Counted from the first letter of the stretch, positions 4,724-62,291 are shown. The stretch is 64,000 bases of DNA from Acidithiobacillus sp. AMEEHan (GCF_030996345.1 NZ_CP118747.1:1858001-1922000), one strand, 5' to 3'. A program made the numbers and translations. The notes: a model not told the origin generated them from the sequence alone.

Positions 4724-4731
4724 CGCTCTGT

Positions 4732-5025: not shown

Positions 5026-5109
5026 AGCGATAGCCTCATGTGGAGATGGGTACCAAGACCTCTAGCAATACCTGTTCCGGCCGCCGATTTCTTGGTAACG
5101 ATTTGATTT

Positions 5110-5155
5110 TTAATAAAAGAAGAAATTCTCCGGCGATCCGCCTGTCGATCACCGG
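5110..5155 (-). terminator. Candidate intrinsic terminator of the gnd-zwf operon
   Basis: On the minus strand the arms at 5155-5147 and 5138-5130 form a nine-base-pair stem with one G-U pair and an eight-base loop, followed by a T-rich run. It lies about 75 bp beyond the zwf stop codon. Confidence 0.5.
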
Positions 5156-5228
5156 CTACACTTCCACGCCTCGATGCTGTTTTTCCCGTAGAGGGTAGGT
5201 GCTAATCCTGTCGTGGGTCGGCGACAGA

Positions 5229-6695: not shown

Positions 6696-7615
6696 TTTGC
6701 CTCCTGTACTACGGCGTGACCACCAAACTGATTGCGCATCATGGCCAGCAGCTTGGCGGCATAGTCATCCTTACCCTGACTGGCCCAGCGCATTTGCAGG
6801 GCGAGGGTGATCACCGGGGCGGGAACCTTTTGCGCCAATGCCGCCTGTGCGGTCCATAGCCCTTCTCCGGAATCCGCAACGATGGGAGCAATATCCGCCA
6901 AGACCTGATCCTTGTGCAGGGTATCGGCAGTGAGATCCAGTAACCAGGAGCGCACCACGCTGCCATAGCGCCACATCTCGGCCACTGCGGCCAGATCCAG
7001 GTGGAATTCCGCCTTGCCCTGGAGGATGGCAAAGCCTTCGGCGAGGGCCTGCATCATGCCGTACTCGATGCCGTTGTGAACCATCTTGACGAAATGTCCG
7101 CTGCCGACTGGACCGCAGTGCAGCCAGCCTTTGTCAGCCCCTGGTGCAAGAATTTTCAGAAAGGGCTCGACTTTGGCCACTGCTTCCGGTTTGCCCCCCA
7201 CCATCAGGGCATAGCCCTCCTGCAGGCCCCAAACACCGCCGGATACGCCAGCATCCACATATTCTACGCCATGCGCCTCGACTTCCTTGGCCTGCGCCAT
7301 GGAGTCACCATAAAAGGCATTAGCGCCGTTGACGAGGACGTCGCCCGTGGCGAGGAGCGGCAGGATTTCTCGGATGTGCTCGGCGGTCGGAGCGCCTGCT
7401 GGCAGCATCAGCCACACGACGCGCGGGGCGGGCAGCTGTCCGACCAGTTCTTGCAAGGTGGTGGCGGCCTGCATTCCCGTCTCCTTCGCCAACTCCTGCG
7501 CCTTTTCGATATGGCGGTTGTAGGCGACCACCTCGGCACCATCGCGCTGCAGACGGCGTGCCATATTGCCGCCCATGCGTCCTAAACCCACCATTCCGAT
7601 TTTGCCTACTGCCAT
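6692..7615 (-). CDS. gnd: 6-phosphogluconate dehydrogenase, decarboxylating (short, GndA/YqeC type)
   Basis: 307 residues, matching the short bacterial class rather than the 470-residue E. coli Gnd. It opens with the Rossmann motif GLGRMGGNMA, includes the conserved GAGSG-like substrate loop as GVSGGVWGL, and has the catalytic Lys/Asn segment HFVKMVHNGIEYG. It converts 6-phosphogluconate to ribulose-5-phosphate with CO2 release. Short-class enzymes are often NAD-dependent; this cannot be settled from sequence alone. First gene of the gnd-zwf pair. The ATG at 7613-7615 is preceded by GGAGGTGG on the minus strand, a strong ribosome site. Confidence 0.94.
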   Translation of the reverse strand: MAVGKIGMVGLGRMGGNMARRLQRDGAEVVAYNRHIEKAQELAKETGMQAATTLQELVGQLPAPRVVWLMLPAGAPTAEHIREILPLLATGDVLVNGANAFYGDSMAQAKEVEAHGVEYVDAGVSGGVWGLQEGYALMVGGKPEAVAKVEPFLKILAPGADKGWLHCGPVGSGHFVKMVHNGIEYGMMQALAEGFAILQGKAEFHLDLAAVAEMWRYGSVVRSWLLDLTADTLHKDQVLADIAPIVADSGEGLWTAQAALAQKVPAPVITLALQMRWASQGKDDYAAKLLAMMRNQFGGHAVVQEAK

Positions 7616-7688
7616 GTTCCACCTCCTGACGATCCCCGGCTGACACTGCTATGCTCTCAGTATAGTCAGCTCATAAGGATCAGGACGG

Positions 7689-8882
7689 ATGGCGATGGAA
7701 TTTTCTTTGGGTACGCCGCTGGCAGCAGGGGCAACGCGGATTCTGCTGCTGGGCGCTGGTGAATTGGGCAAGGAGTTCATCATCGCCGCGCAGCGTCTGG
7801 GGGTGGAGACTATCGCCGTCGACCGCTACGCCCATGCGCCTGCCATGCAGGTCGCGCATCGTAGCGAGGTCATCGATATGACCGATGCCGACGCGATTCT
7901 GGCCCTGGTGGCGCGTGAACGGCCAGATTTTGTGGTACCGGAAATCGAGGCCATCGCCACCCACGCCTTGGCGCAAATTGAAGAAAGAGGCCTGGCCACG
8001 GTCATTCCCACGGCCCGAGCGGTGCGCCTGACCATGGATCGCGAAGGCATCCGCCGCCTTGCCGCCGAGGAGCTCTCCCTGCGAACCTCTCCCTATGCCT
8101 TTGCTGGTTCTTTGGTGGAGCTGCAGAAAGCCAGCGCGAAGATCGGTTTCCCCTGCGTCGTCAAGCCGGTGATGTCTTCCAGCGGCAAGGGGCAGTCGGT
8201 GCTGCACTCCTTCGACGAAGTCGGCGCCGCTTGGGAGGAAGCGCAGAGCGCCGGGCGGGTGCGTGGCCAGCGAGTCATTATCGAGGGTTTTGTCGATTTC
8301 GATTTTGAAATCACCCTGCTGACGGTGCGGGGCGCGACCGAAACGGTCTTTTGTGAACCCATTGGCCATCGCCAGGAGGCGGGCGATTACGTCGAATCCT
8401 GGCAACCGCAGCCCATGTCCGCCAAGGCACTGACCGCGGCGCAGGAAATGGCGCGGCAGGTGACCGAGGCCTTGGGCGGACGCGGTATCTTTGGGGTGGA
8501 ATTCTTTGTGCGCGGCGAGGAGGTCTATTTCAGCGAATTATCCCCTCGCCCTCACGACACCGGTATGGTGACGCTGATCAGCCAGCGCCAGAACGAATTT
8601 GAGCTGCACCTGCGCGCGATCCTCGGTTTGCCGGTGGATCCGGGATTTCGGCGCGCCTCGGCTTCGGCAGTGATTCGCGCCGGCGACGTCGGCTGGGGGC
8701 CGGTATACAGCGGCGTAGCTGCTGCCCTAGCCGTCCCCGAAAGCGATCTGCACCTGTTTGGTAAACCGCAGGCGCAGAAGCTGCGTCGCCTCGGGGTAGC
8801 ATTGGCCAGCGCGGACACGATCGACCTCGCCCGCCAGCGGGCGAAACAGGCGGCCGCAGAAATCCAAGTCGCCCGTGGTTGA
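7689..8882 (+). CDS. purT: Formate-dependent phosphoribosylglycinamide formyltransferase
   Basis: 397 residues of ATP-grasp type. The N-terminal GAGELGKE motif and the ATP-grasp segments [14 protein letters not shown] and the metal-binding stretch [17 protein letters not shown] match PurT closely. It makes formyl-GAR from GAR, formate and ATP in purine synthesis, without folate. Two in-frame starts (7689 and 7695) each have a plausible upstream purine-rich site; 7689 is kept. Convergent with the small exported-protein gene downstream, with only 15 bp between the stops. Confidence 0.96.
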
Positions 8883-18802: not shown

Positions 18803-18853
18803 TTATTGGTGCCGTTGAGGGGAATCGAACCTCTGACCTACTGATTACGAATC
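18803..18853. repeat. Attachment site shared by islands A and B (left end of B)
   Basis: These 51 bases are identical to 57187-57237, which cover the 3' end of the tRNA-Thr gene including its encoded CCA. The identity stops in the anticodon stem. The integrase gene starts about 185 bp to the right. Confidence 0.93.
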
Positions 18854-19037: not shown

Positions 19038-20255
19038 ATGCCGAGCCAGAAGATGTTAACCGACCGCAAGATTGCCAATGCCAAAAGCCAAGCTAAACGC
19101 TACGAGATGGCAGACGAAAATGACCATGGAAGGGGCACTCTCCTGGTCCGAGTTGCTCCGACGGGCAGTAAGACTTTTGTGTTTCGTTACTACAACAACG
19201 GCAAGGTAAGGCGACTCACCCTCGGCGAATACGGAAATCTCCCTTCTCAGCTCACCCTCGCTCAGGCCAGAGCGAAAACCGCAGAGGCAGTCTCCAAGCT
19301 CGAGCAGGGCGTGGATCCGGCTAAAGAAGAAATCCAAAAGAAAAGCGAAGCTGCCAAAGCGCCCACGGTTACCAATCTTGCTCTTGAGTATCTAGAGAAA
19401 TGGGCGAAAGTCCGCAAGCGATCCTGGAGGGAGGATGAGCGCATCCTGGTAAGGGATGTGCTCCCAGTCTGGGGAGAGAAAAAGGCACGCGATGTTACCC
19501 GTCGAGATGTTGTCCTGCTGTTAGACGGTATCGTCAATCGTGGTGCCCAGATCGCTGCAAACAGGACCCTCGCGCTCATCCGAAAAATGTTCAATTTTGG
19601 CGTGAGCCGATCCATTCTGGAGTTCAACCCATGCGCAGGCGTGCAGGCGCCCTCCAAAGAGCACCAGAAGGACCGTGTGCTGAGCGATGAAGAAATCGTC
19701 CAATTTTGGCGTGGCCTCGAGACAGCGGGCATGTCGTTGGCTACGAAATTAGTGCTGCGTATGATGCTGGTAACCGGTCAAAGATTAGGAGAGATCAATC
19801 AACTGTGTAGGGAACAGATTGAGGAAGACTGGTGGACGATACCTGCCAGTATTGCCAAGAATGGAAAAGCCCACCGTGTTCCACTCTCTTCGCTTGCTCT
19901 ATCCCTCCTTGCCGAGAGTGAAAAGATTGCCGGCACCCAATACATTTTCGCTTCGCCGAAGACAGGGGCGGGCAAAGAACGACCGATGTCAACCACAGCG
20001 CTATCTCATGCCCTCCGAAAGAACCACGAACTGTTAGGCCTTCCCCCCTTTACCCCTCATGATCTGCGACGAACCGCCGCAACCCATATCGGTATGCTGG
20101 GATTCAATCGGCTGATCATCTCCAAGATACTCAATCACGTTGAAGGCGGCGTTACAGCCATCTACGATCGCCACACCTACGACAACGAGAAGCGCGAAGC
20201 ACTCCATGCATGGTCAGCAAAACTTGAGCGATTATTTTCGGATCATTTCTTGTAA
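19038..20255 (+). CDS. int: P4-type tyrosine recombinase (integrase)
   Basis: 405 residues. N-terminal DUF4102-type arm-binding domain (LTDRKIANAK onwards), core-binding domain about 110-210, catalytic domain with R249 in TGQRLGE, H341-x-x-R344, H367 and nucleophile Y376. It integrates and, with a directionality factor, excises the element at the tRNA-Thr site. An ATG at 19053 (MLTDRK) is the more usual family start; no clear ribosome site separates the two. It reads into the island from the 18803 att copy. Unusually, it lies at the end away from the intact tRNA. Confidence 0.95.
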   Translation: MPSQKMLTDRKIANAKSQAKRYEMADENDHGRGTLLVRVAPTGSKTFVFRYYNNGKVRRLTLGEYGNLPSQLTLAQARAKTAEAVSKLEQGVDPAKEEIQKKSEAAKAPTVTNLALEYLEKWAKVRKRSWREDERILVRDVLPVWGEKKARDVTRRDVVLLLDGIVNRGAQIAANRTLALIRKMFNFGVSRSILEFNPCAGVQAPSKEHQKDRVLSDEEIVQFWRGLETAGMSLATKLVLRMMLVTGQRLGEINQLCREQIEEDWWTIPASIAKNGKAHRVPLSSLALSLLAESEKIAGTQYIFASPKTGAGKERPMSTTALSHALRKNHELLGLPPFTPHDLRRTAATHIGMLGFNRLIISKILNHVEGGVTAIYDRHTYDNEKREALHAWSAKLERLFSDHFL

Positions 20256-25662: not shown

Positions 25663-28628
25663 ATGATTGAACAAGACATCGAATCCTCCTTGATCCAAAA
25701 GCTGGGTGACCTCAAGTACACCTACCGGCCCGATATCCGGAACCGTGCCGCTCTGGAGCACAATTTCCGGCAGCACTTCGAGGCCCTCAACCACGTCCAA
25801 CTGACGGATAGCGAGTTTCACCGACTCCTGGACTCCATCGTTACCCCGGATGTTTACGGTGCCTCTCGCATGCTTCGGGAGCGCAACAGTTTCGAACGCG
25901 ACGATGGCACCCCCCTGTACTACACCCTGGTCAACATTAAGGACTGGTGCAAGAACACCTTTGAGGTCATCCACCAGCTGCGGATCAATACTGACTACAG
26001 CCACCACCGCTACGACGTGATCCTTTTGCTCAATGGCGTACCCGTGGTTCAGATCGAGCTCAAGACCCTGGCCATCAGCCCTCGCCGTGCCATCCAGCAG
26101 ATCGTCGAGTACAAGAACGATCCCGGCAACGGCTACAGCAAGACGCTGCTCTGCTTCCTGCAGATCTTCGTGGTCAGCAACCGCAGCGAAAGTTGGTACT
26201 TCGCCAATAATAACAGCCGCCACTTCGTTTTCAACGCCGACGAGCGCTTTCTGCCGCTCTACCAGTTCGCCCGAGAGGACAACAGCAAGATCACCCATCT
26301 GGACGACTTTGCCGAAGCGTTTCTGGCCAAGTGCACTCTGGGGGAGATGATCAGCCGCTACATGGTCCTGGTCGCCAGCGAACAGAAGCTCCTCATGATG
26401 CGGCCTTATCAAATCTATGCCGTCAAGGCGATTGTCGATTGTATCCACCAACACCGGGGCAATGGCTACATCTGGCACACCACGGGCAGCGGCAAGACCC
26501 TAACTTCCTTCAAGGCTTCCACGCTCCTCAAAGATAACCCGGATATCGACAAGTGCCTCTTTGTCGTGGACCGCAAAGACCTCGATCGCCAGACCCGCGA
26601 CGAGTTCAACCGGTTTCAGGAAGGTTGTGTGGAAGAGAACACCCACACTGGCGCCCTGGTCCGTCGCATGCTCTCCGAGGACTACGCCGACAAGGTCATC
26701 GTGACTACCATTCAGAAGCTAGGTTTGGCCCTGGACGGCAGCCATCGCCGCAACTACAAGGAACAACTGGAACCCTTACGGCAAAAGCGCATCGTCTTCA
26801 TCTTCGACGAATGCCACCGCTCCCAGTTTGGCGAGAACCACAAGGCCATCAAGGAGTTCTTCCCCCGCTCCCAGCTCTTTGGGTTTACCGGTACCCCCAT
26901 CTTTGAGCAAAACGCGAGTTACCAGCAGATCGAAGGGGAACAAGCCACCTTCCGGACGACCGAAGACATCTTTCAGCAGCAGCTCCACGCTTACACCATC
27001 ACCCACGCCATCGAGGATCGGAACGTCCTGCGTTTTCATGTGGATTACTACAAGCCTGAAGGCAAACATCCCCCAAGCCCGGAGAGGCGCTGGCCAAGCG
27101 CGCCATTGTCGAGGCCATCCTCACCAAACACGATGCCGCAACGGCAGGGCGCAAGTTCAACGCACTACTGGCGACTGCCTCCATCAACGACGCCATCGAG
27201 TACCATACCCTTTTTGCGACCATGCAGGCCGAGCGTCAGGAAACCGATCCTGAGTTTCGTCCCCTGAACATCGCCTGTGTTTTTTCCCCGCCTGCCGAGG
27301 GCAATCTCGACGTCCTGCAGATTCAGGAAGACCTGCCCCAGGAAAAGGCCGACAACACCCAAGACCCAGACCGCAAGAAAGCCGCACTTACTGCCATCAT
27401 TGCCGACTACAACCGACGCTATGGTGCCCACCACAGCGTCGGAGAGTTTGACCTGTACTACCAGGACGTGCAGAAGCGCATCAAGGACCAGCAGTATCCC
27501 AACAGCGATCTGCCCCACACCCAGAAGATCGACATCACCATCGTCGTCGACATGCTCCTGACGGGCTTTGACTCCCAGTACCTCAATACCCTCTACGTCG
27601 ATAAGAACCTCAAGTACCACGGTCTGATCCAAGCCTTCTCCCGAACCAACCGGGTCCTGAACGATACCAAGCCCTACGGCAACATCCTCGACTTCCGCCA
27701 GCAGCAGGCGGCAGTAGATACCGCCATCAGCCTCTTCTCCGGCCAATCGGGTGAACAGGCCAAGAAAATCTGGCTGGTGGATAAAGCCCCTGTCGTCATC
27801 GCCCGACTCCAGGAGGCAAAGACCAAGCTTGATACCTTCCTCGAATCCCAAGGGCTCACCCCAATACCGGAGGCTGTCCCGCAACTACAAGGCGATGCTG
27901 CCCGCGTCCAGTTCATACAGCTCTTCAAAGAGGTGCAGCGCTGCAAGACGCAGCTGGATCAGTACACGGACATCACCCCCAAAGAAACTCTCGTCATCAA
28001 CGAAGCCTTGCCCAAGGAGATCCTGCAAGGCTTCAAAGGGGTCTACCTAGAAACTGCGGAGCGACTAAAAGAGCAGCGGGAACGACCCAACCAGCCCAGT
28101 AACCCTGAAGTCGAACAACTAGACTTCGAGTTTGTGCTCTTTGCCTCTGCCGTCATCGACTACGACTACATCATGGGGCTGATCACCCGCTATGCGAACC
28201 CGAGCTCCGGCAAGCAGACGCTGAAGCGGGAAGAGCTCGTGGGGCTGATCGTCTCGGATGCCAAGTTCCTGGACGAACGGGAAGAGATCACCGAGTACAT
28301 TGATACCCTACAGGCTGGCAAGGGGCTAGACGAGAACGCCGTACGCGAGGGCTTTGAGCGCTTCAAAGCCGAGAAGCAAAAGCGGCAGGTTGTGGACATC
28401 GCCACCGCGCATGGACTGAAGCCCAAGGTCCTGCAAGACTTCATCGATGGGACTCTCAGCCGTATGATTTTCGATGGTGAGCAGCTGAGTGAACTCCTGG
28501 CCCCGCAGCAACTTGGCTGGAAGGCCAGAAGCCAAAAGGAGCAGGCCCTCATGCAGGATCTGATACCCTTGTTCCACAAGCTCGCCCAGGGACGGGAGAT
28601 TTCGGGGTTGGAAGCGTATGAGCAGTGA
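25663..28628 (+). pseudogene. hsdR: Type I restriction enzyme R subunit, one-base frameshift
   Basis: Two overlapping frames (25663-27267 and 27222-28628) together make one full HsdR of about 988 residues: N-terminal nuclease domain with QIELKTL, Walker A TTGSGKT, FDECHRS box, FTGTPIF motif and C-terminal helical region. The frame breaks in DYYKPEGKHPP at about 27070-27078; one extra A there would restore KPGEALAKRAIV. All motifs are intact on both sides, so the lesion is recent or a sequencing error. If real, the nuclease/motor cannot be made full-length and the locus would only methylate. Confidence 0.88.
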
Positions 28629-33817: not shown

Positions 33818-34536
33818 TCGAATCCCGTGGGAGAATGGGTGGTATGCAGCGAAAGCAGTCGTTCGCGAGATCCACATTATCGACTAAGGAGTACTCTATT
33901 TCTCAAGATTATTCCGCACAGAATACCATTTCCGAAAAGCCACCAGACTCCAGATATGTTAATCAGCGTGCAAAAGTGAACATCTGATCTAGCCCCAAAA
34001 GTGCGTCTTGCCCCCAATATTGGCGCAAGCACCCTGCTGTCAGGCCCTTTACCGTTCGAATTACCCCACTTTTCTGGAGAATTCTCGGATTTTTGGCACA
34101 CCACTTCCTACGCCGTCAGCAGAGATCTCCGCAGCATGTACAAGTTGGCAAAGGCAAAGAGTGTGGTGAGCTGAGCCCCGTTCTTGGCCAATCCCCGATA
34201 GCGCGTGCGCTGATTTTTTGAGATTCTGGATCAAAGGCAGCGCCTTCTTCGGCTAGATCAGATCTTCCTTAGCTCATCGGCTGCCCCCGAAATCGGCTTT
34301 TCACTAAGGTCCGCTGCCACGTCTCTGAAGGTCTCCTCCCTGTATTGCGTCAAGGCGGCACTGATCTCGAGGCGTATGTGTTTCCGAGTCCGCCAACCCA
34401 ACTGACACGGCAGACTGGCTATACCGTGGCGACCAATTTACGAGGGACGCAAGGTGTGCATCCATGGCTCGCCATTCTGCGTAATATAGACGTGGGAAGT
34501 ATAGTGAAGTTTGGCAACAGCGCGGGAGATGCAATT
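33818..34536. other. Intergenic stretch with an IS5-type transposase tail
   Basis: Mostly non-coding. On the minus strand about 34235-34105 encodes TRYRGLAKNGAQLTTLFAFANLYMLRRSLL and a stop, the C-terminus of an IS5-type transposase. Nothing else in the stretch is recognisable up to the HiPIP-like gene. Confidence 0.6.
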
Positions 34537-34814
34537 ATGGATAGACCGTTGAATCGTCGGGAATGGCCAAAAACCAGTGGAAAGGCTGCGCTGGCTTTAA
34601 CTGTCGCACCTTTGATCTTTGCGCCTTTGGCTGAGGCAGGCACGCTCGCCAGCAAGGCTTCTGAAGCTATCAGGACCATCCATCCAGTGGCGATATGTGC
34701 AGCAACTGCGCGAACTTCGTCCCGGGATCGAGTTCAGCCGCGATGGGGACGTGCAAACTGGTAGAAGGCTCCATCAGCCCACACGGCTACTGTTTCGATT
34801 ACGTCCCCCGTTAA
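34537..34814 (+). pseudogene. High-potential iron-sulfur protein (HiPIP) gene with one-base frameshift
   Basis: ATG 34537 has GGGAG about eight bases upstream and encodes a twin-arginine signal (RREWPKTSGKAALALTVA). The frame then breaks near 34667. In the shifted frame the sequence reads YQDHPSSGDMCSNCANF, GTCKLVEG and SPHGYCFDYVPR to TAA 34812-34814, giving the HiPIP cluster pattern C-x2-C-x14-C-x12-C. One missing base separates the parts. HiPIPs carry electrons in the periplasm, as Iro does in iron oxidisers. The exported ferritin-like gene follows. Confidence 0.82.
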
Positions 34815-34951
34815 TACCTGAGAAGATGCGAGGTGGAAGACCGATGTTATCCAATTTAAGTGATGCTGGAAAAGTCTGTTGTATAAGAGGATGCTGAAAA
34901 AGTTTGTCTTAGGTTGAGTCCTATCAGGTTTCAGGAACCACAAGGAGTGTA

Positions 34952-35569
34952 ATGCACATGTCTACATCGAATACTTCTCGTCGTGATTTTTTCAAAAAGA
35001 GTGCCCTTTTTACTGCTGGCATTGCTGCGGCCTCGACGGTGACGGCGCCAGGACTGGCGGAAGCTGCCGCCTGGGGCGGGGACAAGGACTGGAAGCACGA
35101 CGCGGCCCTGCTCAACGTCGCGTTGAACCTCGAGCACCAAGCCATTGCCGCCTATCAGGTTGGAGCGGAGAGCAAATTGCTCACGCCAGCTATTCTCAAG
35201 GTCGCCTTGGCGTTCCAGAAGGACCATGAGGCGCACGCTGCGGTGCTCGTGGAAACCATCAAGAAGATTGGTGGCAAGCCCGTGGCACCACGGGCGCCGC
35301 TCACGGCGCCGATGGCGGATCTGGCCAAGGCCTGGAATTTCCCGGTAGGCAAACTCAAAGACCAGGCCGATGTGCTGCACTTTGCGGCGGGTCTGGAAAT
35401 CGGGGCGGCCAAAGCCTATCTCGGCACGGTACCGGAGTTTGGGGATCGCGCCTTGGCGAAAGCCGCCGCCAACATTGAAGGGGACGAAACCATGCACTAT
35501 GCCATTCTTCGGAATGCGCTAGGTGAGTTTCCGGTTCCCGCGGCCTTTGTGTCGGCCATGCCAGACTGA
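34952..35569 (+). CDS. Twin-arginine-exported ferritin-like protein
   Basis: 205 residues with a Tat signal (R10-R11 in SRRDFFKKSALF, cleavage near AEAAA). The mature part is a four-helix bundle with ferritin-like ligands: E61-H62 in NLEHQAIAAY, D91-H92-E93 in KDHEAHAAV, E-x2-x-AKAYLG further on and GDETMHYAIL. It resembles the exported ferritin-like domain family (Ferritin_2). Export by Tat suggests it folds with metal in the cytoplasm and acts in the periplasm in iron binding or oxidation. A second start at 34958 is also possible. Confidence 0.82.
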   Translation: MHMSTSNTSRRDFFKKSALFTAGIAAASTVTAPGLAEAAAWGGDKDWKHDAALLNVALNLEHQAIAAYQVGAESKLLTPAILKVALAFQKDHEAHAAVLVETIKKIGGKPVAPRAPLTAPMADLAKAWNFPVGKLKDQADVLHFAAGLEIGAAKAYLGTVPEFGDRALAKAAANIEGDETMHYAILRNALGEFPVPAAFVSAMPD

Positions 35570-35688
35570 CCTATCGCGAGGACGGGAACCTCTGCGGGGC
35601 CATCTTTGTGTCAAGGTGGCCCTTTTGATTCATCGGTAGACGGTCGTCGTCGCTCTGGAAGCGGCAGCGGAATAGGGAGGGGATGGTC

Positions 35689-35883
35689 ATGCAAAAGAAT
35701 GCAGGGATGGTAGATCGTGCTATTCGTGTCCTGGTGGGCATGGCTCTGTTGGCTTTAGTGTTTGTTGGGCCCCACACCCCTTGGGGGTTGATTGGGATCT
35801 TGCCACTCGTCACTGGACTGGTTGGGTATTGTCCGGCGTACAGTTTGTTTGGGCTGCGAACCTGCTCTAAGAGCAAATTGTAA
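35689..35883 (+). CDS. DUF2892 small inner-membrane protein
   Basis: 64 residues from ATG 35689; an ATG at 35683 lies directly against the GGGAGGGG site. The pattern RAIRVLVGMALLAL, PWGLIGILPLVTGLVGYCPAYSLFGLRTC is that of DUF2892, two helices with a conserved Cys pair in the second half. Relatives are fused to or sit beside rhodanese (sulfur-transfer) domains. Its stop overlaps the next start by one base. Confidence 0.82.
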   Translation: MQKNAGMVDRAIRVLVGMALLALVFVGPHTPWGLIGILPLVTGLVGYCPAYSLFGLRTCSKSKL

Positions 35884-36497
35884 TGGGGAGTGATCTTCAA
35901 AGTGATATCTTAGGGCGTCCTGGCGCCCAGCCAGAAGAAGAACCCGTCTGGCCTGGGGCCGCAAGATGGATCCACCTAGGATTACTCCTGAGTGTTACCT
36001 TTCAAATGGTCACGGGTCTTGCCGGGTGGCTACTCGGAGTGTTTCCTTTCGCCTGGCATGTTCGCGTGGGGTTATTCCTGGTCACAATCCTGGGGTTGCA
36101 ATGGGGTTGGTTATGGATAACCCTGCAGGGGCGACGAACCCTGGGTTACCTTTTTCCTTGGACTCCGCGTGGCTTTTCAGCCCTTGCCAAAGATGTGGTT
36201 GGCTTATCTCGTGGTGTGCTTGCGCCTCCCGGACCGAGGCCGGGTTTACCCGGATTTATGCACGGGATTTTTCTTTTGTCCGTTACGCTCGTTGCTTTGT
36301 CTGGCCTAACCCTTCTGGGAGAATTTCGAGGGTGGTGGAGTGGAGTTCCAATGGGAACCCTGCTGACGACTTTGCGAATGGGTGCCCTCGCAGTTGCCAT
36401 ACAATGGCTCGGGCATGTAGGAATGGTCATCCTCCACGCTATCAAGGGAGATTCCATTTGGGGGATATTTAGCAGGAGAGGCAGGACATCATCATGA
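35883..36497 (+). CDS. Cytochrome b561-like membrane protein
   Basis: 204 residues, four hydrophobic helices. Candidate haem ligands are H31 (RWIHLGLLL), H59 (AWHVRVG), H127 (FMHGIF), H178 and H185 (GHVGMVILHAIKGD), fitting a di-haem b561-type fold. It probably passes electrons between the quinone pool and a periplasmic partner. The start overlaps the DUF2892 stop by one base and the stop overlaps the next start by four, so this is a tight operon with the ferritin-like and DoxX-like genes. Confidence 0.75.
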   Translation: MGSDLQSDILGRPGAQPEEEPVWPGAARWIHLGLLLSVTFQMVTGLAGWLLGVFPFAWHVRVGLFLVTILGLQWGWLWITLQGRRTLGYLFPWTPRGFSALAKDVVGLSRGVLAPPGPRPGLPGFMHGIFLLSVTLVALSGLTLLGEFRGWWSGVPMGTLLTTLRMGALAVAIQWLGHVGMVILHAIKGDSIWGIFSRRGRTSS

Positions 36498-36913
36498 CCA
36501 GCGCAAGTCGCCGGGAGATTTTCAAGCGTAGCGTGCTGGTGTTTGTATTCTTCTGGTTCTTCTTCGGAAGTTTGGCGCATTTCCTTTTCACCCGAGCAGA
36601 AGCCGGAATCGTCCCCACGTATATACCGTTTCACCGATTGGACGTATACGTGAGTGGTGTGTTGGAAATGTTGGGCGCCATTGGCGTGCTTTTCAAGAGG
36701 GCTAGATCGTGGGCCGGGATTGGGCTTTTTCTGCTTACCATCGCCGTTACCCCAGCCAATATACACATGGCCATGCACTGGAGAAGTTATCCTGAGGTAA
36801 GCCCGTGGATATTGAATGCCAGATTGGTTTTCCAAGTTATTTTCTTGGCAGGTATTTGGTGGTCTACAGGAGCTTCGAAATATTACGCACCATTTTACAA
36901 AGGGAAACACTAA
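36494..36913 (+). CDS. DoxX-like membrane protein
   Basis: 139 residues, four helices with the DoxX-type pattern YIPFHRLDVYVSGVLEMLGAIGVLF and TPANIHMAMHW. DoxX-type proteins are found with thiosulfate:quinone oxidoreductase (DoxDA) and with other respiratory or redox systems. The start overlaps the cytochrome gene by four bases, and the following gene starts directly after its stop. The role in this operon is unknown; proximity to a b-type cytochrome suggests a redox link. Confidence 0.72.
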   Translation: MTSASRREIFKRSVLVFVFFWFFFGSLAHFLFTRAEAGIVPTYIPFHRLDVYVSGVLEMLGAIGVLFKRARSWAGIGLFLLTIAVTPANIHMAMHWRSYPEVSPWILNARLVFQVIFLAGIWWSTGASKYYAPFYKGKH

Positions 36914-37849
36914 TTGGTAACGAAACGCATCACTTGTCCTCCGAGAAAATTCCGTATTTTCACACACTATTACCGATTCCTTATTGCTGGTCTTTCTGGG
37001 ATCATGTCCGGATGCTCTCCCATCCACATCATCAACAATCTTACACCAACAAGCACTTATAAGATTGATCGCGGAATCCGCTATCAAAACCAGCCCAGAG
37101 GCCATCTCGATGTCTATGTCCCTGTACCTGGAGATGGCTATCCCAGGCCATCCAAAGGCTACCCAGTGGTAATCTTCATCTATGGTGGAGCTTGGGACAG
37201 TGGTGACAGACAAGAGTATAAATTCGTGGGTGAAGCCTTGGCAGCACGAGGGATGGTCGTAGTGATCCCCAACTATCGGCTATATCCGGAGGTACGGTAC
37301 CCTGCGTTCTTGCGCGATAATGCGCGCGCTGTTGCCTGGACGTACCATCACATAGCCGCGCACGAGGGCAATCCCAAAGATCTCTTCATCATGGGTCACA
37401 GCGCAGGGGCATACAATGCAGCCATGTTAGTATTAGATCCTCGCTGGCTGCATGCAGTTGGGTTGCAGCCGAATATCTTCAGTGGTTGGATCGGCCTGGC
37501 TGGACCATACAACTTCTATCCAATCACCTATAAACCCGTCCGCCCAATCTTTTTCTATCCGAACTATCCTGCTATGAGCATGCCCATAGACTTCGCAAAT
37601 GATCCAGATGCACCAAGAACCTTTTTGGGAGCGGCGGCACACGATAATCTCGTAAATCCGAAAACAAACACAAATGTTTTAGCAAAAGATCTCAAAAAAG
37701 CTGGCGTGCCAGTGGAACTGAAAATTTACCGTGGAGTAAATCATGAAACATTGATTGGCGCATTCGCCAAGCCGCTACGCTGGATGGCTCCAGTGCTTGA
37801 TGATGTAGTAGCTTTTATCAAAGTTGGTCACGATCTCCATCAAAAATAG
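36914..37849 (+). CDS. Alpha/beta-hydrolase (esterase/lipase-type), probable lipoprotein
   Basis: 311 residues from a TTG directly after the preceding stop. The catalytic Ser163 lies in GHSAGAY, the oxyanion loop in YGGAW (90-94), and the Asp and His candidates near the C-terminus (ending GVNHETLIGAFAKPL). The N-terminus is hydrophobic with Cys34 after MSG, which could be a lipidation site. It resembles the carboxylesterase/kynurenine-formamidase-like group. It is the last gene of the operon; no substrate can be named. Confidence 0.75.
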   Translation: MVTKRITCPPRKFRIFTHYYRFLIAGLSGIMSGCSPIHIINNLTPTSTYKIDRGIRYQNQPRGHLDVYVPVPGDGYPRPSKGYPVVIFIYGGAWDSGDRQEYKFVGEALAARGMVVVIPNYRLYPEVRYPAFLRDNARAVAWTYHHIAAHEGNPKDLFIMGHSAGAYNAAMLVLDPRWLHAVGLQPNIFSGWIGLAGPYNFYPITYKPVRPIFFYPNYPAMSMPIDFANDPDAPRTFLGAAAHDNLVNPKTNTNVLAKDLKKAGVPVELKIYRGVNHETLIGAFAKPLRWMAPVLDDVVAFIKVGHDLHQK

Positions 37850-38097
37850 CAATGTCAAATCTCGTGGCTTGGCGAGGCAGTAAATCCTAACAAAAATAAT
37901 TCTGACCTCCTATACTAAACGTCCGCTTTCAGTCTCTTCCCGCCCATGGCGCAGCGCCTTGGCTGAATTTACCGCTTTCCATTGAAGGACGGCAAGCATA
38001 ATCGTCCTATGCCCGTCAGCCCCAGATCCTTGGTCTATAGCCGCCCTCGTTACACGCCATCTGATAGACTCTCCAGATCAGACGAGGAGGTTATCGA
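37850..38097. other. Intergenic stretch with a short dispersed repeat
   Basis: No gene. GTCCGCTTTCAGTCT at about 37920-37935 is one copy of the 15-base motif found around the mer operon. GAGGAGG at 38084-38090 is the ribosome site of the dinB-like gene. Confidence 0.5.
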
Positions 38098-39218
38098 TTG
38101 CCCAGCCCACCAGAGCGCAGCCTCGCTCTCAGCAAAATCATTCACGTGGATATGGACGCGTTCTTTGCGGCTGTGGAGCAACGCGATCGGCCAGAGCTCC
38201 ATGGTCGGCCGGTGATTGTCGGTGGCGACCCCAATGGCCGGGGAGTCGTTGCCACCTGCAGCTACGAAACCCGACGTTTTGGGATCCACTCGGCCATGTC
38301 GGCGGCACGGGCTCGCTCACTCTGCCCGCAGGCCATCTTTGTCCGTCCCCGCATGGAAGCCTATCGAGAGGCCTCCCGTCAGGTTATGGCTATCCTACGC
38401 AGTTACACATCACTCGTGGAGCCACTGTCGCTGGATGAGGCCTTTCTGGACGTCACTGCTGCCACCGCCGATGGTGTCCTGGCGGTCGAAATCGCCCGCG
38501 AGATTCTGGACAACATTCATCGGGAAACGGGGCTGACCGCTTCGGCAGGGGTCTCCTACAATAAGTTGCTCGCCAAGCTCACCTCCGACTGGCGCAAACC
38601 CCATGGGCTTTTCGTTATCCCGCCCGAATGTGGCCTCGACTTCCTGGCGCCGCTGCCCGTTGGCAAACTGCATGGTGTGGGTCCGGCCACTGTAAAAAAC
38701 TATCCGCCATGGGTATCGACACCGTCTCGGATTTGCGGGCGATAACGCAGGAGCGGTTAATGAGCTGTTTCGGTAAGGCTGGAGCTTGGTTTTACGAAGT
38801 GGCGCGGGGGATCGATAGGCGGCCCGTGCAGCCGACCCGCCAACGGAAATCGGTGGGTACGGAGCGGACCTTCTCGGAAAATCTGGAGGATCGAAGGACC
38901 ATGCTGGCCACGTTACAGGAGATGGCCGGGCAGGTTGCGGGCCGTCTCCAGGCACTCGCCTTGGCGGGCTACACGGTGAACATCAAGGCACGCTTTCCCG
39001 ATTTTGCCACGGTCACCCGAGCGCACACGGCGACCGAAACCATCGGGAATACGGAAACCATCGTGGCATTGCTGCCAGAATTACTGGCTCGGGCAGTTCC
39101 CCAGGGGGCGTCCGTGCGTCTGCTCGGAATCACAGTGAGTGGCCTCGTCCAAATCCAGGCGGCACGCCGCGGCGCCCGCCAGCTGAACTTGCTGAACAGA
39201 ATCCCCGATCTGCGGTAA
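38098..39218 (+). pseudogene. dinB: DNA polymerase IV-like (dinB), one-base frameshift
   Basis: Two frames (38098-38745 and the continuing one to 39218) form a single Y-family polymerase: [11 protein letters not shown] and [10 protein letters not shown] carry the catalytic acids, with YETRRFGI nearby. After HGVGPATVK the frame breaks in a run of six A (38694-38699); one extra A restores [14 protein letters not shown]. The second part holds the thumb and little-finger regions. The TTG start has GAGGAGG seven bases upstream. If real, the frameshift kills the polymerase; if a sequencing error, the gene is intact. Confidence 0.85.
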
Positions 39219-41884: not shown

Positions 41885-44800
41885 ATGGAACTGCGGCAAC
41901 CTGCTTACCATTGGACTATGATCAGATTCCCGAGCTTCAAGCATGTGCCGAGCGAGACGCGGCGGATCCTGCGGGATCGATTCGATAGCAAACTCCGTGT
42001 TGTTCGACAGGACCAGGTTCTTAACCCAGATCAGAAGGTGACACCAGATCAACTCACGCTGAGGATGCTGGTAAACTTGAAAGTCTTTTCAAATGCGGAG
42101 TGGTCTCAAGCTGAAATTGCCTATGTCCAGGCCAGACCAACAGGTAACGAGCCTCCAGACCTGCAGACACTCGCCAATTTGGGGTGGCTACGCCGGGTTT
42201 GGGGCCGAGCTAGAATCAATCTGGATCTTCGCGTATCCGCATTACGTACTTCAACCGGATTGATGGATGCCTTCAAGACCGTCCTTTCCGGAATTGACGA
42301 GCAGCGGTATGAATCCATTGTTGAAGTTCGGACGGATCCTGAACTGGCAGAACTTGTTGACGCCATTCAGAAAGGATGCAGCAACCCATCCCAAATCGTT
42401 AGCCGAACACCCGGATGGATCGCTGCAAGGCTATGGGAACAGATCTTGCCGCAAGAGAGCTCTCCTGAGAGTGCGCTTCGTCGATGGGTGGATTTAACAA
42501 GCCTGCTTCAACATCCATTGATTGTTCCCGAGAAAGCCTGGAGTACATCAGACGCGAATACGTTTCGAGAGACCGCAATCAGAGTAATTGCGAAGGAGCG
42601 CTGCCTCGGCGGATGGAATGAAACTCGGGATCTATACGCCCGTCAGGCTACGCTGAAGCACCATTTATCGCGAGAGGTCGCCGACTCGCGGTTTCCGCCG
42701 CCCCCAGATACGCTGGTTGATCGGGCGCTTTGGGCGGGATCTCATCCGATAGAGGCCAGCACGTATGGTTCACTGGAAGCCTGCGGGGAGCTATTCCGCT
42801 TATTGGGGCTTCTTCTTGCCGACGCCGATGCAGTGGAGAACTCTGCGGCACCCCATCCAGTAGTGGCCCAACTTATCGATTTAGCGATTGACCGTGCCGA
42901 GCTTTTCATTGCTCTATTATTTCAGATCCGGGCACGGCCAAGATTGCTAGCGGACCTCGTCATACATCCACGGACCGCAGGGCTCGCGTGCCTCCTAATC
43001 GCGCAATGGAGTTCGCCGGCAGGTGCGTGGGATCGGGGTCTCGTCGAACATGACTTTCATATTGGCCAAGTCAAGGCATTTGCTGATGCAGTGGCAATGC
43101 TCGGAGAGCACTTACGTGCCGGACGGACTGATGCCAGCGAAGCGGCAGCATTGCTCAACTGGCTACATGATCGAACTGGCTCCGGCTTCATTGACGATGC
43201 CGACGAGGGAGATTCACTGATTGAAGCTCTTCGTCGGGAACTGACAAGTTGCTCCGACTCGATTCTGCTCGCGATGGTTCAGTCGCTTGATGGGCCCAAT
43301 TTGCGTCTAGGTGTCGGAGCATCTGAGTTTGCTACGGTTCTCGATCTCTTAGACCTCGGCAGCATTGCGGACGAGGTGGACGCTGACACCATCGTGACCG
43401 CCTATGCCCAATCCATATCGACTGGCGACTACTCACTATCGTCCCATCGAATTGGAGTCGCAGGTGCAGCTGCGCTGGCTCGAATAGCAGGACGAAACCA
43501 AATGTTGCGCAATCGGTTCCTTCATCCCTTGGACGTTCGGGCGCAGCTAGGACTGGCGACTCCTCAAGACAACGAGATCACCCTAGTAGAGACCATAGGG
43601 CGGTCGCTGCGAACACATATCCGGATTCTCTGTCGCGCCATTATCGGTGGGGAGCCAAACGTGCCCCGCGACCTGTTTGATGCTCTAGTCGACACTGTCC
43701 GGACTGGGGCGTTGCAGCACAAGGAAAAAGGGCGCGTCGCAGCGTTCGCACCGCGATTTGAGAAGCGTAGTTGGGGACCGGCCTCCGACCGCCCCTTAGC
43801 TGAGGACTTGGCGGCCGTGCTAACCTTTGTTGATTTCTCACACCAAAAGGCTCTCCTGGCAGCGATTCTTGAAACTGATGAGCCACTCATTCTCGCGCAA
43901 CTGCTGTCGAGAAGTCCGCCCAATCTCCGCACCAACATCGACCGACGCCTCACTACGCTTGCGCCGAACGACGCCGGAACAATCCACACTCTTCCGGAAA
44001 TGCAGGCTCGTATCGACGCGTTACTGACCGCTGGTGCCGCCGACGCCGCCGCAAGCTATATGACTGCCGAGGAAGGGCTTAAGACGTTGGGGAAAACTTC
44101 CGGACGTGAACTCACTCGGTTTCAGAACCAACTTCGACTTGATTTCCTTCGGGAAGACTGGGCGGCGATCGCTGCCAAGGCAGAGCCAGATTTTGCTAGT
44201 CCACAAGAAAAATCAGCGGCGGTTGAATTATTGCGCCAATTTCGTGCACTCACGGCTATTCAAGGACCGAACCAAAATACAAAATTGGCAAAGGCTGAGT
44301 TCCTATATCTCTTTGCTATAAGACCATCGTTTGGTTCCGCTGCCAATTGGTTCGCGGCTGAAGTTGCCGAACTGCTCCAGCCAAATAGCTTTTTAGTCCT
44401 GAAAGGAAATCAAGTTCACCGGGGACGGAGGGCGATTGCTGAATTTGAACGAATGAAAGCGCAGTTTCCATCAGCTGCAGTTGATGAAGGTGTGGAGTGC
44501 AATCGGGCGTTGTTGTTGCTTGCCATAGGTGAGCCTGGCCAAGCCCTTGCCACACTATCTGCTGTGACCTTCTTTCGCCTGCAGGATACCGCCGCAGCTT
44601 ATCGTGCTATAGCGCTCGCTAGGCTTGGCAGGCAACCAGAAGCGACTGCGACGCTGGATGCCGCTGAGCATACTATTGGTAATACTGCGGTTCTAGCCGC
44701 CGCGCGAAGCAACATTGCTAGCGGTGCTCCCTTCCTTTCGGCGCCAGATGTCTCAAGCTATGAAGATTTGACTGATAACGTCGCGTCGGCAATGGCCCGA

Positions 44801-45508
44801 TTCTGGACGATGAATCCCGCCGACCAAGCCCGAGTACTTCGGCGCGAGGCGAATCCATTCGAAGCGCTGCTTATCCACTATGTCCGAGCCGCTGCCGACG
44901 CCGCCGTATCTCTCGTCCCTATGATGGAAAATATTCGGATGGATGCCTGTGAAGATGATCTGAATGCTCTCATACAGTACTTGCTAGCGGCACATATTCA
45001 ATTTCTGGGGTGGTCGGTCAGCGACCAGTCTAAAGGCGGTTATAGCGCCAAGGGGAACCCAGGCGAAAGAGATCTCATCATCAAATGGGGAAGCTCGGTT
45101 TTGGCTCTGATTGAAGCGATGATCTGTGATAGACCACTTACCCAGGATGCGATGAAAGCAAATTTAGAAAGTCATTTCCAGAAGTTGCTTGGATATGGTA
45201 ACTCGAGGATCTTCTTTCATCTTACCTACGCTTATATCGAAGACAAGGTCGAGCTTAATCGATTCCTAGAGGCGATGTCAGAGACTGCAAGTCCGCCTGG
45301 TTTCAGTTTTCTCGGCAAGGATCTGATTCCTCATGAGGACTCTCGACCGCCAGGATTTGCTGCGCGATACTTGGCAGATTTCGGTGAAATAAAGGTCATC
45401 TTTCTTATATTAGATCTAGGTCAACAACGACAACGTCAGGCTGCGAAAACTGCCGGAGAGACTAGAGCACGAAGAGCACGGAAAAGTTCTCTGCCGAATG
45501 CGCCATAA
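41885..45508 (+). CDS. Large protein of unknown family with possible nuclease-like C-terminus
   Basis: 1207 residues, soluble, mostly helical; an alternative start is ATG 41918. About residues 100-1000 have the pattern of stacked helical pairs (for example LALARLGRQPEATATLDAAE, TPR-like), with no Walker motif. From about 1020 the pattern changes to EDDLNALIQYLLA, FLGWSVSDQSKGGYS, GERDLII (D1063) and LALIEAM (E1077), then LESHFQKLLGYGNSRIFF. The acidic D...E pair after a glutamate-bearing helix resembles a PD-(D/E)xK fold, but the usual Lys is replaced (EAM). A scaffold plus nuclease in a defence-rich island suggests a phage-defence effector (inference). No ribosome site stands out. Confidence 0.55.
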   Translation: MELRQPAYHWTMIRFPSFKHVPSETRRILRDRFDSKLRVVRQDQVLNPDQKVTPDQLTLRMLVNLKVFSNAEWSQAEIAYVQARPTGNEPPDLQTLANLGWLRRVWGRARINLDLRVSALRTSTGLMDAFKTVLSGIDEQRYESIVEVRTDPELAELVDAIQKGCSNPSQIVSRTPGWIAARLWEQILPQESSPESALRRWVDLTSLLQHPLIVPEKAWSTSDANTFRETAIRVIAKERCLGGWNETRDLYARQATLKHHLSREVADSRFPPPPDTLVDRALWAGSHPIEASTYGSLEACGELFRLLGLLLADADAVENSAAPHPVVAQLIDLAIDRAELFIALLFQIRARPRLLADLVIHPRTAGLACLLIAQWSSPAGAWDRGLVEHDFHIGQVKAFADAVAMLGEHLRAGRTDASEAAALLNWLHDRTGSGFIDDADEGDSLIEALRRELTSCSDSILLAMVQSLDGPNLRLGVGASEFATVLDLLDLGSIADEVDADTIVTAYAQSISTGDYSLSSHRIGVAGAAALARIAGRNQMLRNRFLHPLDVRAQLGLATPQDNEITLVETIGRSLRTHIRILCRAIIGGEPNVPRDLFDALVDTVRTGALQHKEKGRVAAFAPRFEKRSWGPASDRPLAEDLAAVLTFVDFSHQKALLAAILETDEPLILAQLLSRSPPNLRTNIDRRLTTLAPNDAGTIHTLPEMQARIDALLTAGAADAAASYMTAEEGLKTLGKTSGRELTRFQNQLRLDFLREDWAAIAAKAEPDFASPQEKSAAVELLRQFRALTAIQGPNQNTKLAKAEFLYLFAIRPSFGSAANWFAAEVAELLQPNSFLVLKGNQVHRGRRAIAEFERMKAQFPSAAVDEGVECNRALLLLAIGEPGQALATLSAVTFFRLQDTAAAYRAIALARLGRQPEATATLDAAEHTIGNTAVLAAARSNIASGAPFLSAPDVSSYEDLTDNVASAMARFWTMNPADQARVLRREANPFEALLIHYVRAAADAAVSLVPMMENIRMDACEDDLNALIQYLLAAHIQFLGWSVSDQSKGGYSAKGNPGERDLIIKWGSSVLALIEAMICDRPLTQDAMKANLESHFQKLLGYGNSRIFFHLTYAYIEDKVELNRFLEAMSETASPPGFSFLGKDLIPHEDSRPPGFAARYLADFGEIKVIFLILDLGQQRQRQAAKTAGETRARRARKSSLPNAP

Positions 45509-47774: not shown

Positions 47775-47775
<1 letters not shown>
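47758..47775. repeat. 18-bp direct repeat, left of the mer operon
   Basis: AATGACCGCTTTCAGTCT, identical to 50415-50432. It touches the merA stop codon. Together the copies frame the mer genes. Confidence 0.85.
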
Positions 47776-49878
<2,103 letters not shown>

Positions 49879-49932
49879 GGAAATCTCCTCGAGGTTGTTC
49901 ATAGCAAGTGCAAAACCAGTTCTGATGGACTA

Positions 49933-57186: not shown

Positions 57187-57266
<80 letters not shown>

Positions 57267-59747: not shown

Positions 59748-62291
59748 ATGGTAGATTTCGCCAAGGAAACCTTCCCCGTCAGTCTCGAACAGGAGATGCG
59801 GCAGTCCTACTTGGACTACGCCATGAGCGTCATCGTCGGGCGCGCCCTGCCGGACGTCCGCGACGGCCTCAAGCCGGTGCATCGGCGTGTGCTTTACGCC
59901 ATGCATGAGATGAACAACGACTGGAACAAGCCCTACAAGAAGTCGGCGCGTGTGGTTGGCGATGTCATCGGGAAATACCATCCGCACGGCGACACGGCGG
60001 TCTACGACACCATCGTGCGTATGGCGCAGGATTTCTCCATGCGCTACCCGCTCATCGACGGGCAAGGTAACTTTGGTTCGGTGGATGGCGACAGCCCTGC
60101 CGCCATGCGCTACACCGAAGTACGCATGGCACGGATCGCCCACGAGATGCTCGCCGATATCGATAAGGAGACCGTCGACTTCGGGCCCAACTACGATGAG
60201 AAGGAAGTCGAGCCGCTGGTCTTGCCGGCGCGCATTCCCAACCTGCTGATCAATGGCTCAGCGGGTATTGCCGTAGGTATGGCGACCAACATCCCGCCAC
60301 ACAACCTGACCGAAGTCATGAACGCCTGTGTGGCCTTGATCGACGATCCAGAGCTGAGCGATGAAAGCTTGTTCGCGCTGGTACCGGCGCCGGATTTTCC
60401 CACTGCCGGAATCATTCTGGGGCGGGAAGGCGCCGTCGAGGCCTACCGTACCGGGCGCGGCCGGGTAGTGATGCGCGCCCGCGCGGAATTCGAAACGGAC
60501 AAGAAATCCGGGCGGCAGAGCATCATTGTCACCGAGCTGCCCTACCAGGTGAACAAGGCGAAGCTCATCGAGCGCATTGCCGAGATGGTCAAGGAGAAGC
60601 GTCTCGATGGGATCTCCGACCTGCGCGACGAATCCGATAAGTCGGGTATGCGCATTGCCATCGAGCTCAAGCGCGATGCCAATGGCGACGTGGTACTGAA
60701 CAATCTGTACCAACACAGCGCCATGCAAAGTGTCTTCAATATCAATACGGTGGCACTTCTCGACGGTGCACCGCGCACCTTGGGGCTGCGCGACCTGTTG
60801 CAGGCCTTCCTACGCCACCGCCGCGAAGTCGTCACCCGGCGCAGCATCTTCGAGCTACGCAAGGCGCGGGATCGGGCCCATATCCTTGAAGGACTCGCGG
60901 TTGCTCTCGCCAATATCGATGCCCTGATCGCCTTGATCCGTGCCGCCGCCAATCCGGCGGAGGCCAAGGCGCAGATGCTGGCGCGGGTCTGGCAACCGGG
61001 CATGGTCGAGGCTTTGTTGCGCGAGCGCGGCGAGCCATCGGCGGGACTGCAGGCGGACGGCTATCACCTCTCCGAGGCGCAGGCCCAGGCTATCCTCGAC
61101 CTGCGCCTGCACCGCTTGACCGGTCTTGAGCAGGACAAGATCCGCGATGAGTATCTCGGCCTGCTCGAACGGATCGGTGAGCTCCTCGCCATCCTCGGCT
61201 CCGAGACGCGGCTGATGGCGGTGGTACGGGAAGAGCTGGTCGCCATCCGCGACCAGTACGGCGATGCACGGCGCAGTGAGATCGTGGCGGATACCGGGAA
61301 CATCAGCAACGAAGACCTGATCGCTGAAGAAGACATGGTCGTCACCTTCACCCACGCTGGCTACATCAAGGCGCAGCCGGTAACGGCCTTCAATGCGCAG
61401 CGGCGTGGTGGGCGCGGTAAGGTCGCGACCACCACCAAGGAAGAGGATTTCGTCGAGCGGATGTTTGTCGCCTCGACGCATGCCTATGTGCTTTTTTTCA
61501 GCAACCTCGGCAAGGTGTTTTGGGAAAAGGTATATCAGCTTCCTCAGGCGGGGCGGGGCGCGCGCGGCAAGCCTATCGTCAACCTTTTGTCCCTCGCCCC
61601 TACCGAGCGGATCACCACGGTGCTGCCGGTACGGGAATTCCTCGAAGGTTACTATGTCTGTATGGTGACGGCGCACGGCGTGGTCAAAAAGACCCCGCTC
61701 ATGGAGTACTCGCGGCCTCGCAACCAAGGCATCAATGCCATCAACCTCGATCCGGGTGATCGTCTGGTAGCCGTGTGTCTCTCCGATGGTCAGCGGGAAT
61801 TCATGCTTTTCACCCGCGACGGTATGGCGGTGCGGTTCCCGGAAGACAAGGTGCGCTCCATGGGTCGTACCGCTCGAGGTGTGCGCGGTATCTCCTTGGC
61901 GGAGGAGGATCGCGTCATCTCTGCGCAACTGGTCGAGGAAAGTCAGGTGATCCTCACCGCCACCGCCAATGGCTATGGCAAGCTCACCCCGGTGGCCGAG
62001 TATCGGCGCACCAATCGTGGTGGAAAAGGGGTCATCGCCATCCAGAGCAATGCCCGCAATGGCAAGGTCGTGGGCGCCCTGGCAGTGCAGGACAGCGATG
62101 AGCTGATGCTGGTTTCCGATGGCGGCACCCTGATCCGCATGGCAGTGCGCGAAATTCGCCGCACCGGTCGCAATGCCCAGGGCGTGCGTCTGATCAATCT
62201 GGGTGAAGGTGAACATCTGGCGGGCCTGGCATTGATCGCCGATAGCGAAGACGACGAGGAGGGGCAGGGAGAACTGCCCGTAGACCTTTGA
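59748..62291 (+). CDS. gyrA: DNA gyrase subunit A
   Basis: 847 residues. The N-terminal winged-helix/cleavage domain has the catalytic Tyr122 (AMRYTEVRM); the QRDR reads [10 protein letters not shown] with T83 and D87, so position 83 is Thr rather than the E. coli Ser. The GyrA box (QRRGGRGK) and six-bladed beta-pinwheel ([13 protein letters not shown] onwards) follow. With GyrB it supercoils DNA. It overlaps serC at its stop, one operon. Confidence 0.97.

What the first reader, a model, noticed from the sequence alone, without database searches (positions are those of the whole stretch)
34537..37849. HiPIP, exported ferritin-like protein, DUF2892, b-type cytochrome, DoxX-like and esterase in a tight row
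Overlapping starts and stops tie DUF2892, cytochrome, DoxX-like and esterase genes into one unit, preceded by the Tat-exported ferritin-like and HiPIP genes. Together they could move electrons between a periplasmic metal centre and the membrane. I know no described pathway with this set. It is cargo on a mobile island.
Basis: partly seen in the sequence, partly recalled or inferred. Interest (0 to 1): 0.62.

Follow-up and report, generated by a model that had tools for sequence, protein, structure and literature searches.

The report
Reshuffled, half-decayed acidophile redox gene set
A mobile piece of DNA in an acid-loving bacterium carries a reassembled cluster of cell-envelope redox genes, whose relatives elsewhere sit around an exported globin; one of its electron-carrier genes is broken, so the cluster cannot be the complete electron pathway it first looks like.

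Summary
DUF2892, b-type cytochrome (CYTB), DoxX-like and esterase genes overlap or abut (35683-37849), after a Tat-exported ferritin-like gene (34952-35569). They sit on a 38.4-kb island bounded by tRNA-Thr repeats with an integrase. The HiPIP gene is not intact: a frameshift near 34660-34670 separates its Tat signal from its four-cysteine domain. A terminator-like hairpin separates the ferritin-like gene from the four-gene unit.

The exact set was found nowhere else, but its parts are not a random mix. In other Acidithiobacillaceae the same genes recur in subsets around an exported truncated globin and the outer-membrane protein DUF3034: HiPIP-globin-DUF3034 beside CYTB, globin-esterase beside DoxX, esterase-HiPIP-globin remnant. 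The ferritin-like gene normally follows an ECF sigma/anti-sigma pair; outside the order, one genome has it beside globin-DUF3034. The window lacks globin and DUF3034.

Best reading: an island-borne, recombined and partly decayed version of an undescribed periplasmic redox gene network. Its live part is probably a small envelope oxidant-protection unit (b561 cytochrome, exported ferritin-like metal centre, DoxX-like partner, lipoprotein esterase). The structure is well supported; the function is inference (about 0.35). The network is more interesting than this copy.

The parts
18805..18853 (.). left island repeat (copy of the tRNA-Thr 3' end)
   Evidence: direct repeat D1
19038..20255 (+). tyrosine integrase next to the left repeat
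   Evidence: PF00589 and PF13356
34537..34665 (+). HiPIP pseudogene, N-terminal part (Tat signal, RREW)
   Evidence: 58% identity to the g2 HiPIP over residues 1-49; frame breaks near 34660-34670
34665..34814 (+). HiPIP pseudogene, C-terminal part with the four Fe-S cysteines, in another frame
   Evidence: 69% identity to the g2 HiPIP; PF01355 E 4e-4, 21.1 bits
34952..35569 (+). Tat-exported ferritin-like protein (FER)
   Evidence: PF13668 E 1.5e-28; TIGR01409 at cut-off; about 70% to homologues that follow ECF sigma/RskA genes
35596..35623 (+). terminator-like hairpin after FER
   Evidence: weak as a class of evidence
35683..35883 (+). DUF2892 / YgaP-like two-helix membrane protein
   Evidence: PF11127 E 8e-23
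35883..36497 (+). four-helix b561-type cytochrome (CYTB)
   Evidence: PF01292 over cut-off; heme-type His 31, 59, 178, 185 invariant and His 127 in 9 of 10
36494..36913 (+). DoxX-like membrane protein
   Evidence: 62-64% to g2 homologues; a more distant homologue passes DoxX_2
36914..37849 (+). esterase with lipoprotein-type signal (SGC), GHSAG motif, TTG start
   Evidence: PF20434/PF07859; 82% to same-genus G006
57191..57266 (-). tRNA-Thr (CGT), right end of the island

Best explanation
The cluster is an island-borne, recombined and partly decayed copy of a periplasmic redox gene network of acidithiobacilli. Elsewhere the network is built around an exported truncated globin, the outer-membrane protein DUF3034 and a HiPIP, with CYTB, DoxX, the esterase and the ferritin-like gene as satellites. 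Shown: gene content, coupling, island, frameshifted HiPIP, absence of globin and DUF3034 from the window, recurrence of subsets in relatives. Inferred: the live part is FER alone plus the DUF2892-CYTB-DoxX-esterase operon. CYTB passes electrons between a periplasmic partner or reactive oxygen and the quinone pool, in the manner of superoxide oxidase or LcoA. FER holds a redox-active metal or disposes of peroxide in the periplasm. DoxX is the membrane partner, and the esterase removes damaged or foreign acyl esters at the envelope. The net effect would be protection of the envelope against oxidants in metal-rich acid. If a HiPIP or globin is still needed, the intact copies elsewhere in the genome (HiPIPs L001 and L242; globin L242) would have to supply it.
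For: Junctions. Frameshift and intact relatives of the same HiPIP type. HiPIP-globin-DUF3034 divergent from CYTB in G018, G008 and G024. DoxX divergent from globin-esterase in the g2 genomes. Esterase-HiPIP-globin remnant in same-genus G006. Globin followed by esterase in g3. ECF-RskA-FER beside a CYTB copy in G018 and beside globin-DUF3034 in G136, outside the order. DUF3034 next to a globin in 10 of 15 loci outside the order. FER ligand candidates invariant and a weak profile match to chain RvY_06210 (E 0.006), which I recall as the tardigrade Mn-dependent peroxidase. CYTB histidines conserved, H178/H185 spaced by seven like H151/H158 of superoxide oxidase (PMC11869295). Low dN against high or saturated dS for esterase and FER. 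Literature on b561 and DoxX proteins in envelope oxidative stress (PMC9113575, PMC7907618).
Against: No expression or biochemical data. Most relatives keep the globin, which the window lacks. Several home loci lie next to SQR-like and TusA-like genes, which points to sulfur rather than oxidants. CYTB matched no solved structure by profile, so superoxide-oxidase activity is not indicated by sequence. DUF2892 next to CYTB was found in no relative. dinB and hsdR in the same island are also broken, so the island may simply be decaying.
Confidence: 0.5

Rival explanations
1. The genes serve sulfide or sulfur-compound oxidation: DoxX (named from thiosulfate:quinone oxidoreductase) and CYTB feed electrons from a periplasmic sulfur reaction to quinone, with DUF2892 as helper.
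For: Several globin/HiPIP/DUF3034 home loci lie beside SQR-like genes (PF07992) and in G002 a TusA-like gene. Transcript studies cited in PMC2621215 suggest that the HiPIP Iro of A. ferrooxidans acts in sulfur oxidation.
Against: No sulfur enzyme is in the window cluster. The DoxX-like protein matches no Pfam DoxX model over cut-off. The TQO partner DoxD/DoxA was not recognised, though not searched for separately.
Confidence: 0.2
2. The row is an accidental recombination product without joint function: each gene was captured separately and the island is decaying.
For: HiPIP, dinB (38098-39218) and hsdR (25663-28628) are all split by frameshifts. The exact order occurs nowhere else. FER has intact paralogues in the genome. 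Transposase genes lie nearby.
Against: Three consecutive junctions of one-base overlap, four-base overlap and zero gap. HiPIP, CYTB, DoxX and esterase all come from one recurring set, unlikely for random capture. CYTB, DoxX, esterase and FER are all full length.
Confidence: 0.22
3. One reading: a complete path for electrons between a periplasmic metal centre, HiPIP and the membrane.
For: The families fit such a path; HiPIP and CYTB are neighbours in three sister genomes.
Against: The HiPIP is frameshifted; FER is separated from the membrane genes by a gap with a terminator-like hairpin; FER's usual home is a sigma/anti-sigma operon.
Confidence: 0.08

Closest known systems
Superoxide oxidase CybB / b561 family (PF01292)
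   Same: Four-helix b-type cytochrome with conserved heme-type histidines; two C-terminal histidines spaced by seven as in H151/H158
   Different: No profile match to solved structures; superoxide antenna residues not established; operon partners differ
LcoA-BcnA (b561 plus YceI lipocalin) of Burkholderia, PMC9113575
   Same: b561 cytochrome cotranscribed with an envelope partner, protecting against peroxidation
   Different: No lipocalin here; partners are DoxX-like, esterase and DUF2892
DoxX operon under ECF sigma RpoE2/SigE (Haemophilus, Neisseria), PMC7907618
   Same: DoxX-like membrane protein in an operon with envelope oxidative stress control
   Different: The Hvf-type partner genes are absent; sigma/anti-sigma genes are not in the window cluster
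ECF sigma-RskA-ferritin-like operon of Acidithiobacillaceae
   Same: FER is about 70% identical
   Different: The window copy lacks the sigma and anti-sigma genes and lies on an island
HiPIP-globin-DUF3034 locus of Acidithiobacillaceae (this work, e.g. L151, L242)
   Same: HiPIP of the same type; CYTB next to it in G018, G008 and G024
   Different: Globin and DUF3034 are missing from the window and the HiPIP is broken

Membership tests
HiPIP (PF01355) | one open frame from Tat signal through the four-cysteine Fe-S domain | tested here: not met
   parts lie in two frames; break near 34660-34670
HiPIP (PF01355) | four cysteines in CxxC...C...C order | tested here: met
   MCSNC...GTC...GYC in the C-terminal part; PF01355 21.1 bits, just under the cut-off of 22
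Ferritin-like (PF13668 Ferritin_2) | family profile over cut-off | tested here: met
   100.1 bits vs 24.7
Ferritin-like (PF13668 Ferritin_2) | classic ligand set E, ExxH, E, ExxH | tested here: inconclusive
   E61, E149 and E179xxH182 invariant; helix 2 reads D-H-E-A-H (HxxH with E93), no strict ExxH
Ferritin-like (PF13668 Ferritin_2) | four-helix bundle fold | tested here: inconclusive
   single-sequence model had pLDDT 36 and cannot be used
Cytochrome b561 (PF01292) | family profile and heme histidines | tested here: met
   34.2 bits vs 30.1; His 31, 59, 178, 185 invariant
Superoxide oxidase (CybB) | superoxide oxidation and quinone reduction activity | not testable with these tools
   only histidine spacing compared; no profile match to a solved structure
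DoxX / thiosulfate:quinone oxidoreductase | DoxX model over cut-off and DoxD/DoxA partner | tested here: not met
   no DoxX-type Pfam hit over cut-off for the window protein; only homologue L060 passes DoxX_2; partner not seen among the cluster's genes
YgaP | rhodanese domain fused to the membrane domain | tested here: not met
   66-aa protein with the membrane part only
BD-FAE / hormone-sensitive-lipase-like esterase | alpha/beta hydrolase profile and GxSxG nucleophile | tested here: met
   PF20434 73.6 bits, GHSAG
Integrative genomic island at a tRNA gene | flanking direct repeats, integrase, tRNA | tested here: met

The most novel reading that the evidence does not exclude
An undescribed periplasmic system in acidophiles, in which an exported truncated globin, a HiPIP, the DUF3034 outer-membrane protein, a b561 cytochrome, a DoxX-like protein, a lipoprotein esterase and a Tat-exported ferritin-like protein work together to handle oxygen, peroxide or nitric oxide at very low pH; the window carries a mobile membrane module of it.
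Probability: 0.25. Interest if true: 0.7.

Novelty: new variant of a known kind. Interest (0 to 1): 0.42.

Why it matters
Each gene belongs to a known family, but the repeated linkage of an exported globin, DUF3034, HiPIP, b561 cytochrome, DoxX, esterase and ferritin-like protein points to a joint periplasmic job that I found no paper describing. It suggests roles for DUF3034 and for exported globins, and offers acidithiobacilli used in bioleaching as test organisms. The window shows that part of this set can travel on an island and be rebuilt into a new operon.

Tried and rejected
Single-sequence AlphaFold2 of the ferritin-like protein: mean pLDDT 36, not used, and no fold search was run. Plasmid collection: no match to 34300-38100. 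Solved-structure searches: CYTB nothing useful; FER only weak matches. Homologues of DoxX in 28 other genomes (L041-L068): none near CYTB, DUF2892 or FER; only L060 has a clear esterase homologue beside DoxX, also divergent. Globin or DUF3034 remnants at the cluster: none. DUF2892 as a linking gene: rejected, because every genome has several copies and the three other contexts looked at were unrelated. Sequencing error as the cause of the HiPIP frameshift: cannot be excluded, but the break is not in a homopolymer and long open frames in the flanking chromosomal part (for example 59748-62291 and 5229-6695) are uninterrupted.

Full report
What is there. The window lies in a 2.63-Mb genome (G000, window at C1:1858001-1922000) whose nearest relatives held are 7 genomes of the same genus and 21 others of the same family. 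Four genes on the + strand are joined: DUF2892 (35683-35883), b-type cytochrome CYTB (35883-36497), DoxX-like (36494-36913) and esterase (36914-37849). The first junction is TAATG, the second ATGA, and the third is a TAA followed at once by a TTG start preceded by AAAGGG. The esterase has a lipoprotein-like signal (IMSGC) in register with its relatives (VLSAC), and needs the TTG start for it.

Upstream, the ferritin-like gene FER (34952-35569) has a Tat signal exactly at the TIGR01409 cut-off and a strong Ferritin_2 match. A hairpin of 11 pairs followed by TTTGATT lies just after it (35596-35623), and 113 bases separate it from DUF2892. I treat FER as a separate transcription unit; this is weak evidence, since hairpin-like hits are only slightly more frequent here than in shuffles.

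The HiPIP. The cysteine part (SYQDHPSSGDMCSNCANF...GTCKLVEGSISPHGYCFDYVPR, stop at 34812-34814) is in another frame. Alignment with the intact gene of the same-genus genome G006 (L166) puts the break near 34660-34670. The remnant is of the type found next to globins elsewhere (77% and 74% to G006, 70% to L242 of the own genome over the matched part, 68% and 64% to G018) rather than the type at L001 (52%). Its surviving part still shows more silent than replacement change, so the break looks recent. HsdR (25663-28628) and DinB (38098-39218) in the same island are also split into two frames. A sequencing error is possible but less likely.

The island. A tRNA-Thr (CGT) gene at 57191-57266 and a repeat of its 3' part at 18805-18853 bound 38,384 bases that begin with an integrase (19038-20255) and carry a type I restriction system, IS91-type and ISL3-type transposases, and a mercuric-reductase-like gene.

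Relatives. The exact set is in none of the other 30 genomes of the order. The parts, however, recur together. (a) HiPIP-globin-DUF3034 lies divergent from a 60%-identical CYTB in G018 and G008, and in G024 with an insertion between them. (b) DoxX lies divergent from globin-esterase in G008, G016, G018, G023 and G024, and in G017 across contig ends. (c) Esterase-HiPIP-globin remnant is in same-genus G006. (d) Globin followed by esterase is in G025 and G026. (e) DUF3034, globin and HiPIP lie in one stretch in at least G000, G001, G002, G016, G018, G023, G024 and G025, in several with an OmpA-type lipoprotein between globin and HiPIP. (f) FER follows an ECF sigma factor and RskA-type anti-sigma in nearly every genome that has it. 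In G018 this operon lies beside a second CYTB copy with a DUF3034 remnant between. Outside the order, DUF3034 has a globin beside it in 10 of 15 loci. G385 has HiPIP-DUF3034-globin at 56-70% identity, and G136 has ECF-RskA, globin-DUF3034 and FER in one stretch. Thus HiPIP, CYTB, DoxX, esterase and FER all have links to the globin/DUF3034 set; DUF2892 has none that I saw, and it is present in several copies in every genome.

What it probably does. The network is exported or membrane-bound: Tat (HiPIP, FER), signal-bearing globin, outer membrane (DUF3034, by my reading of its sequence), lipoprotein (esterase), inner membrane (CYTB, DoxX, DUF2892). CYTB keeps His 31, 59, 178 and 185 in all ten aligned sequences. 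The last two have the spacing of the heme ligand H151 and the quinone-site H158 of superoxide oxidase (PMC11869295), but no solved structure matched by profile. FER keeps E61, H92-E93-A-H95, E149 and E179xxH182 in all twelve sequences. The best profile match, weak at E 0.006, is chain RvY_06210, which from my own knowledge is the tardigrade Mn-dependent peroxidase; I did not confirm this in a paper. Cytochrome b561 proteins protect against membrane peroxidation with an envelope partner in Burkholderia (PMC9113575), and a DoxX-like operon is under an envelope oxidative-stress sigma factor in Haemophilus (PMC7907618). On these grounds I prefer envelope oxidant/oxygen protection (about 0.35). Sulfur oxidation is the main functional rival, because several home loci adjoin SQR-like and TusA-like genes. 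I put the evolutionary statement (recombined, partly decayed island version of a recurring set) at about 0.8; the combined explanation is scored 0.5.

Limits. The 31 genomes of the order are not independent; the cross-genus cases (G006, g2, g3, G136, G385) carry the weight. No p-value was computed for the recurrence. The literature search covers open-access papers only.

Noticed in passing
38098-39218: DinB-type polymerase gene is split into two overlapping frames (IMS part and IMS_C part), apparently frameshifted.
   Followed up: partly
25663-28628: HsdR of the island's type I restriction system is split into two frames; HsdM looks intact.
   Followed up: partly
L242:4382-8121 (own genome C1, about 1463.9-1467.6 kb): Intact DUF3034, globin, acetate-transporter-like, OmpA lipoprotein and HiPIP genes in a row, followed by tandem remnants of DUF3034 and globin; a sigma-54 regulator lies downstream.
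   Followed up: partly
L279 (G136) 4464-8829: ECF-RskA, globin-DUF3034 and ferritin-like genes in one stretch in a genome outside the order: support for one gene network.
   Followed up: partly
L280 (G385) 6235-8344: HiPIP-DUF3034-globin at 56-70% identity in another family of the class, suggesting transfer or old linkage.
   Followed up: no
G000:C2:16596-17189 and G000:C1:2431984-2432577 (L080, L079): Ferritin-like gene with its sigma/anti-sigma neighbours appears with identical scores on two contigs of the own assembly; contig C2 may be a redundant or strain-variant copy.
   Followed up: no
41885-45508: 1207-aa open frame on the island with no Pfam match at 1e-5.
   Followed up: no
47775-49902: Mercuric-reductase-like gene (HMA plus pyridine nucleotide-disulphide oxidoreductase) beside a small membrane protein gene on the - strand of the island.
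   Followed up: no
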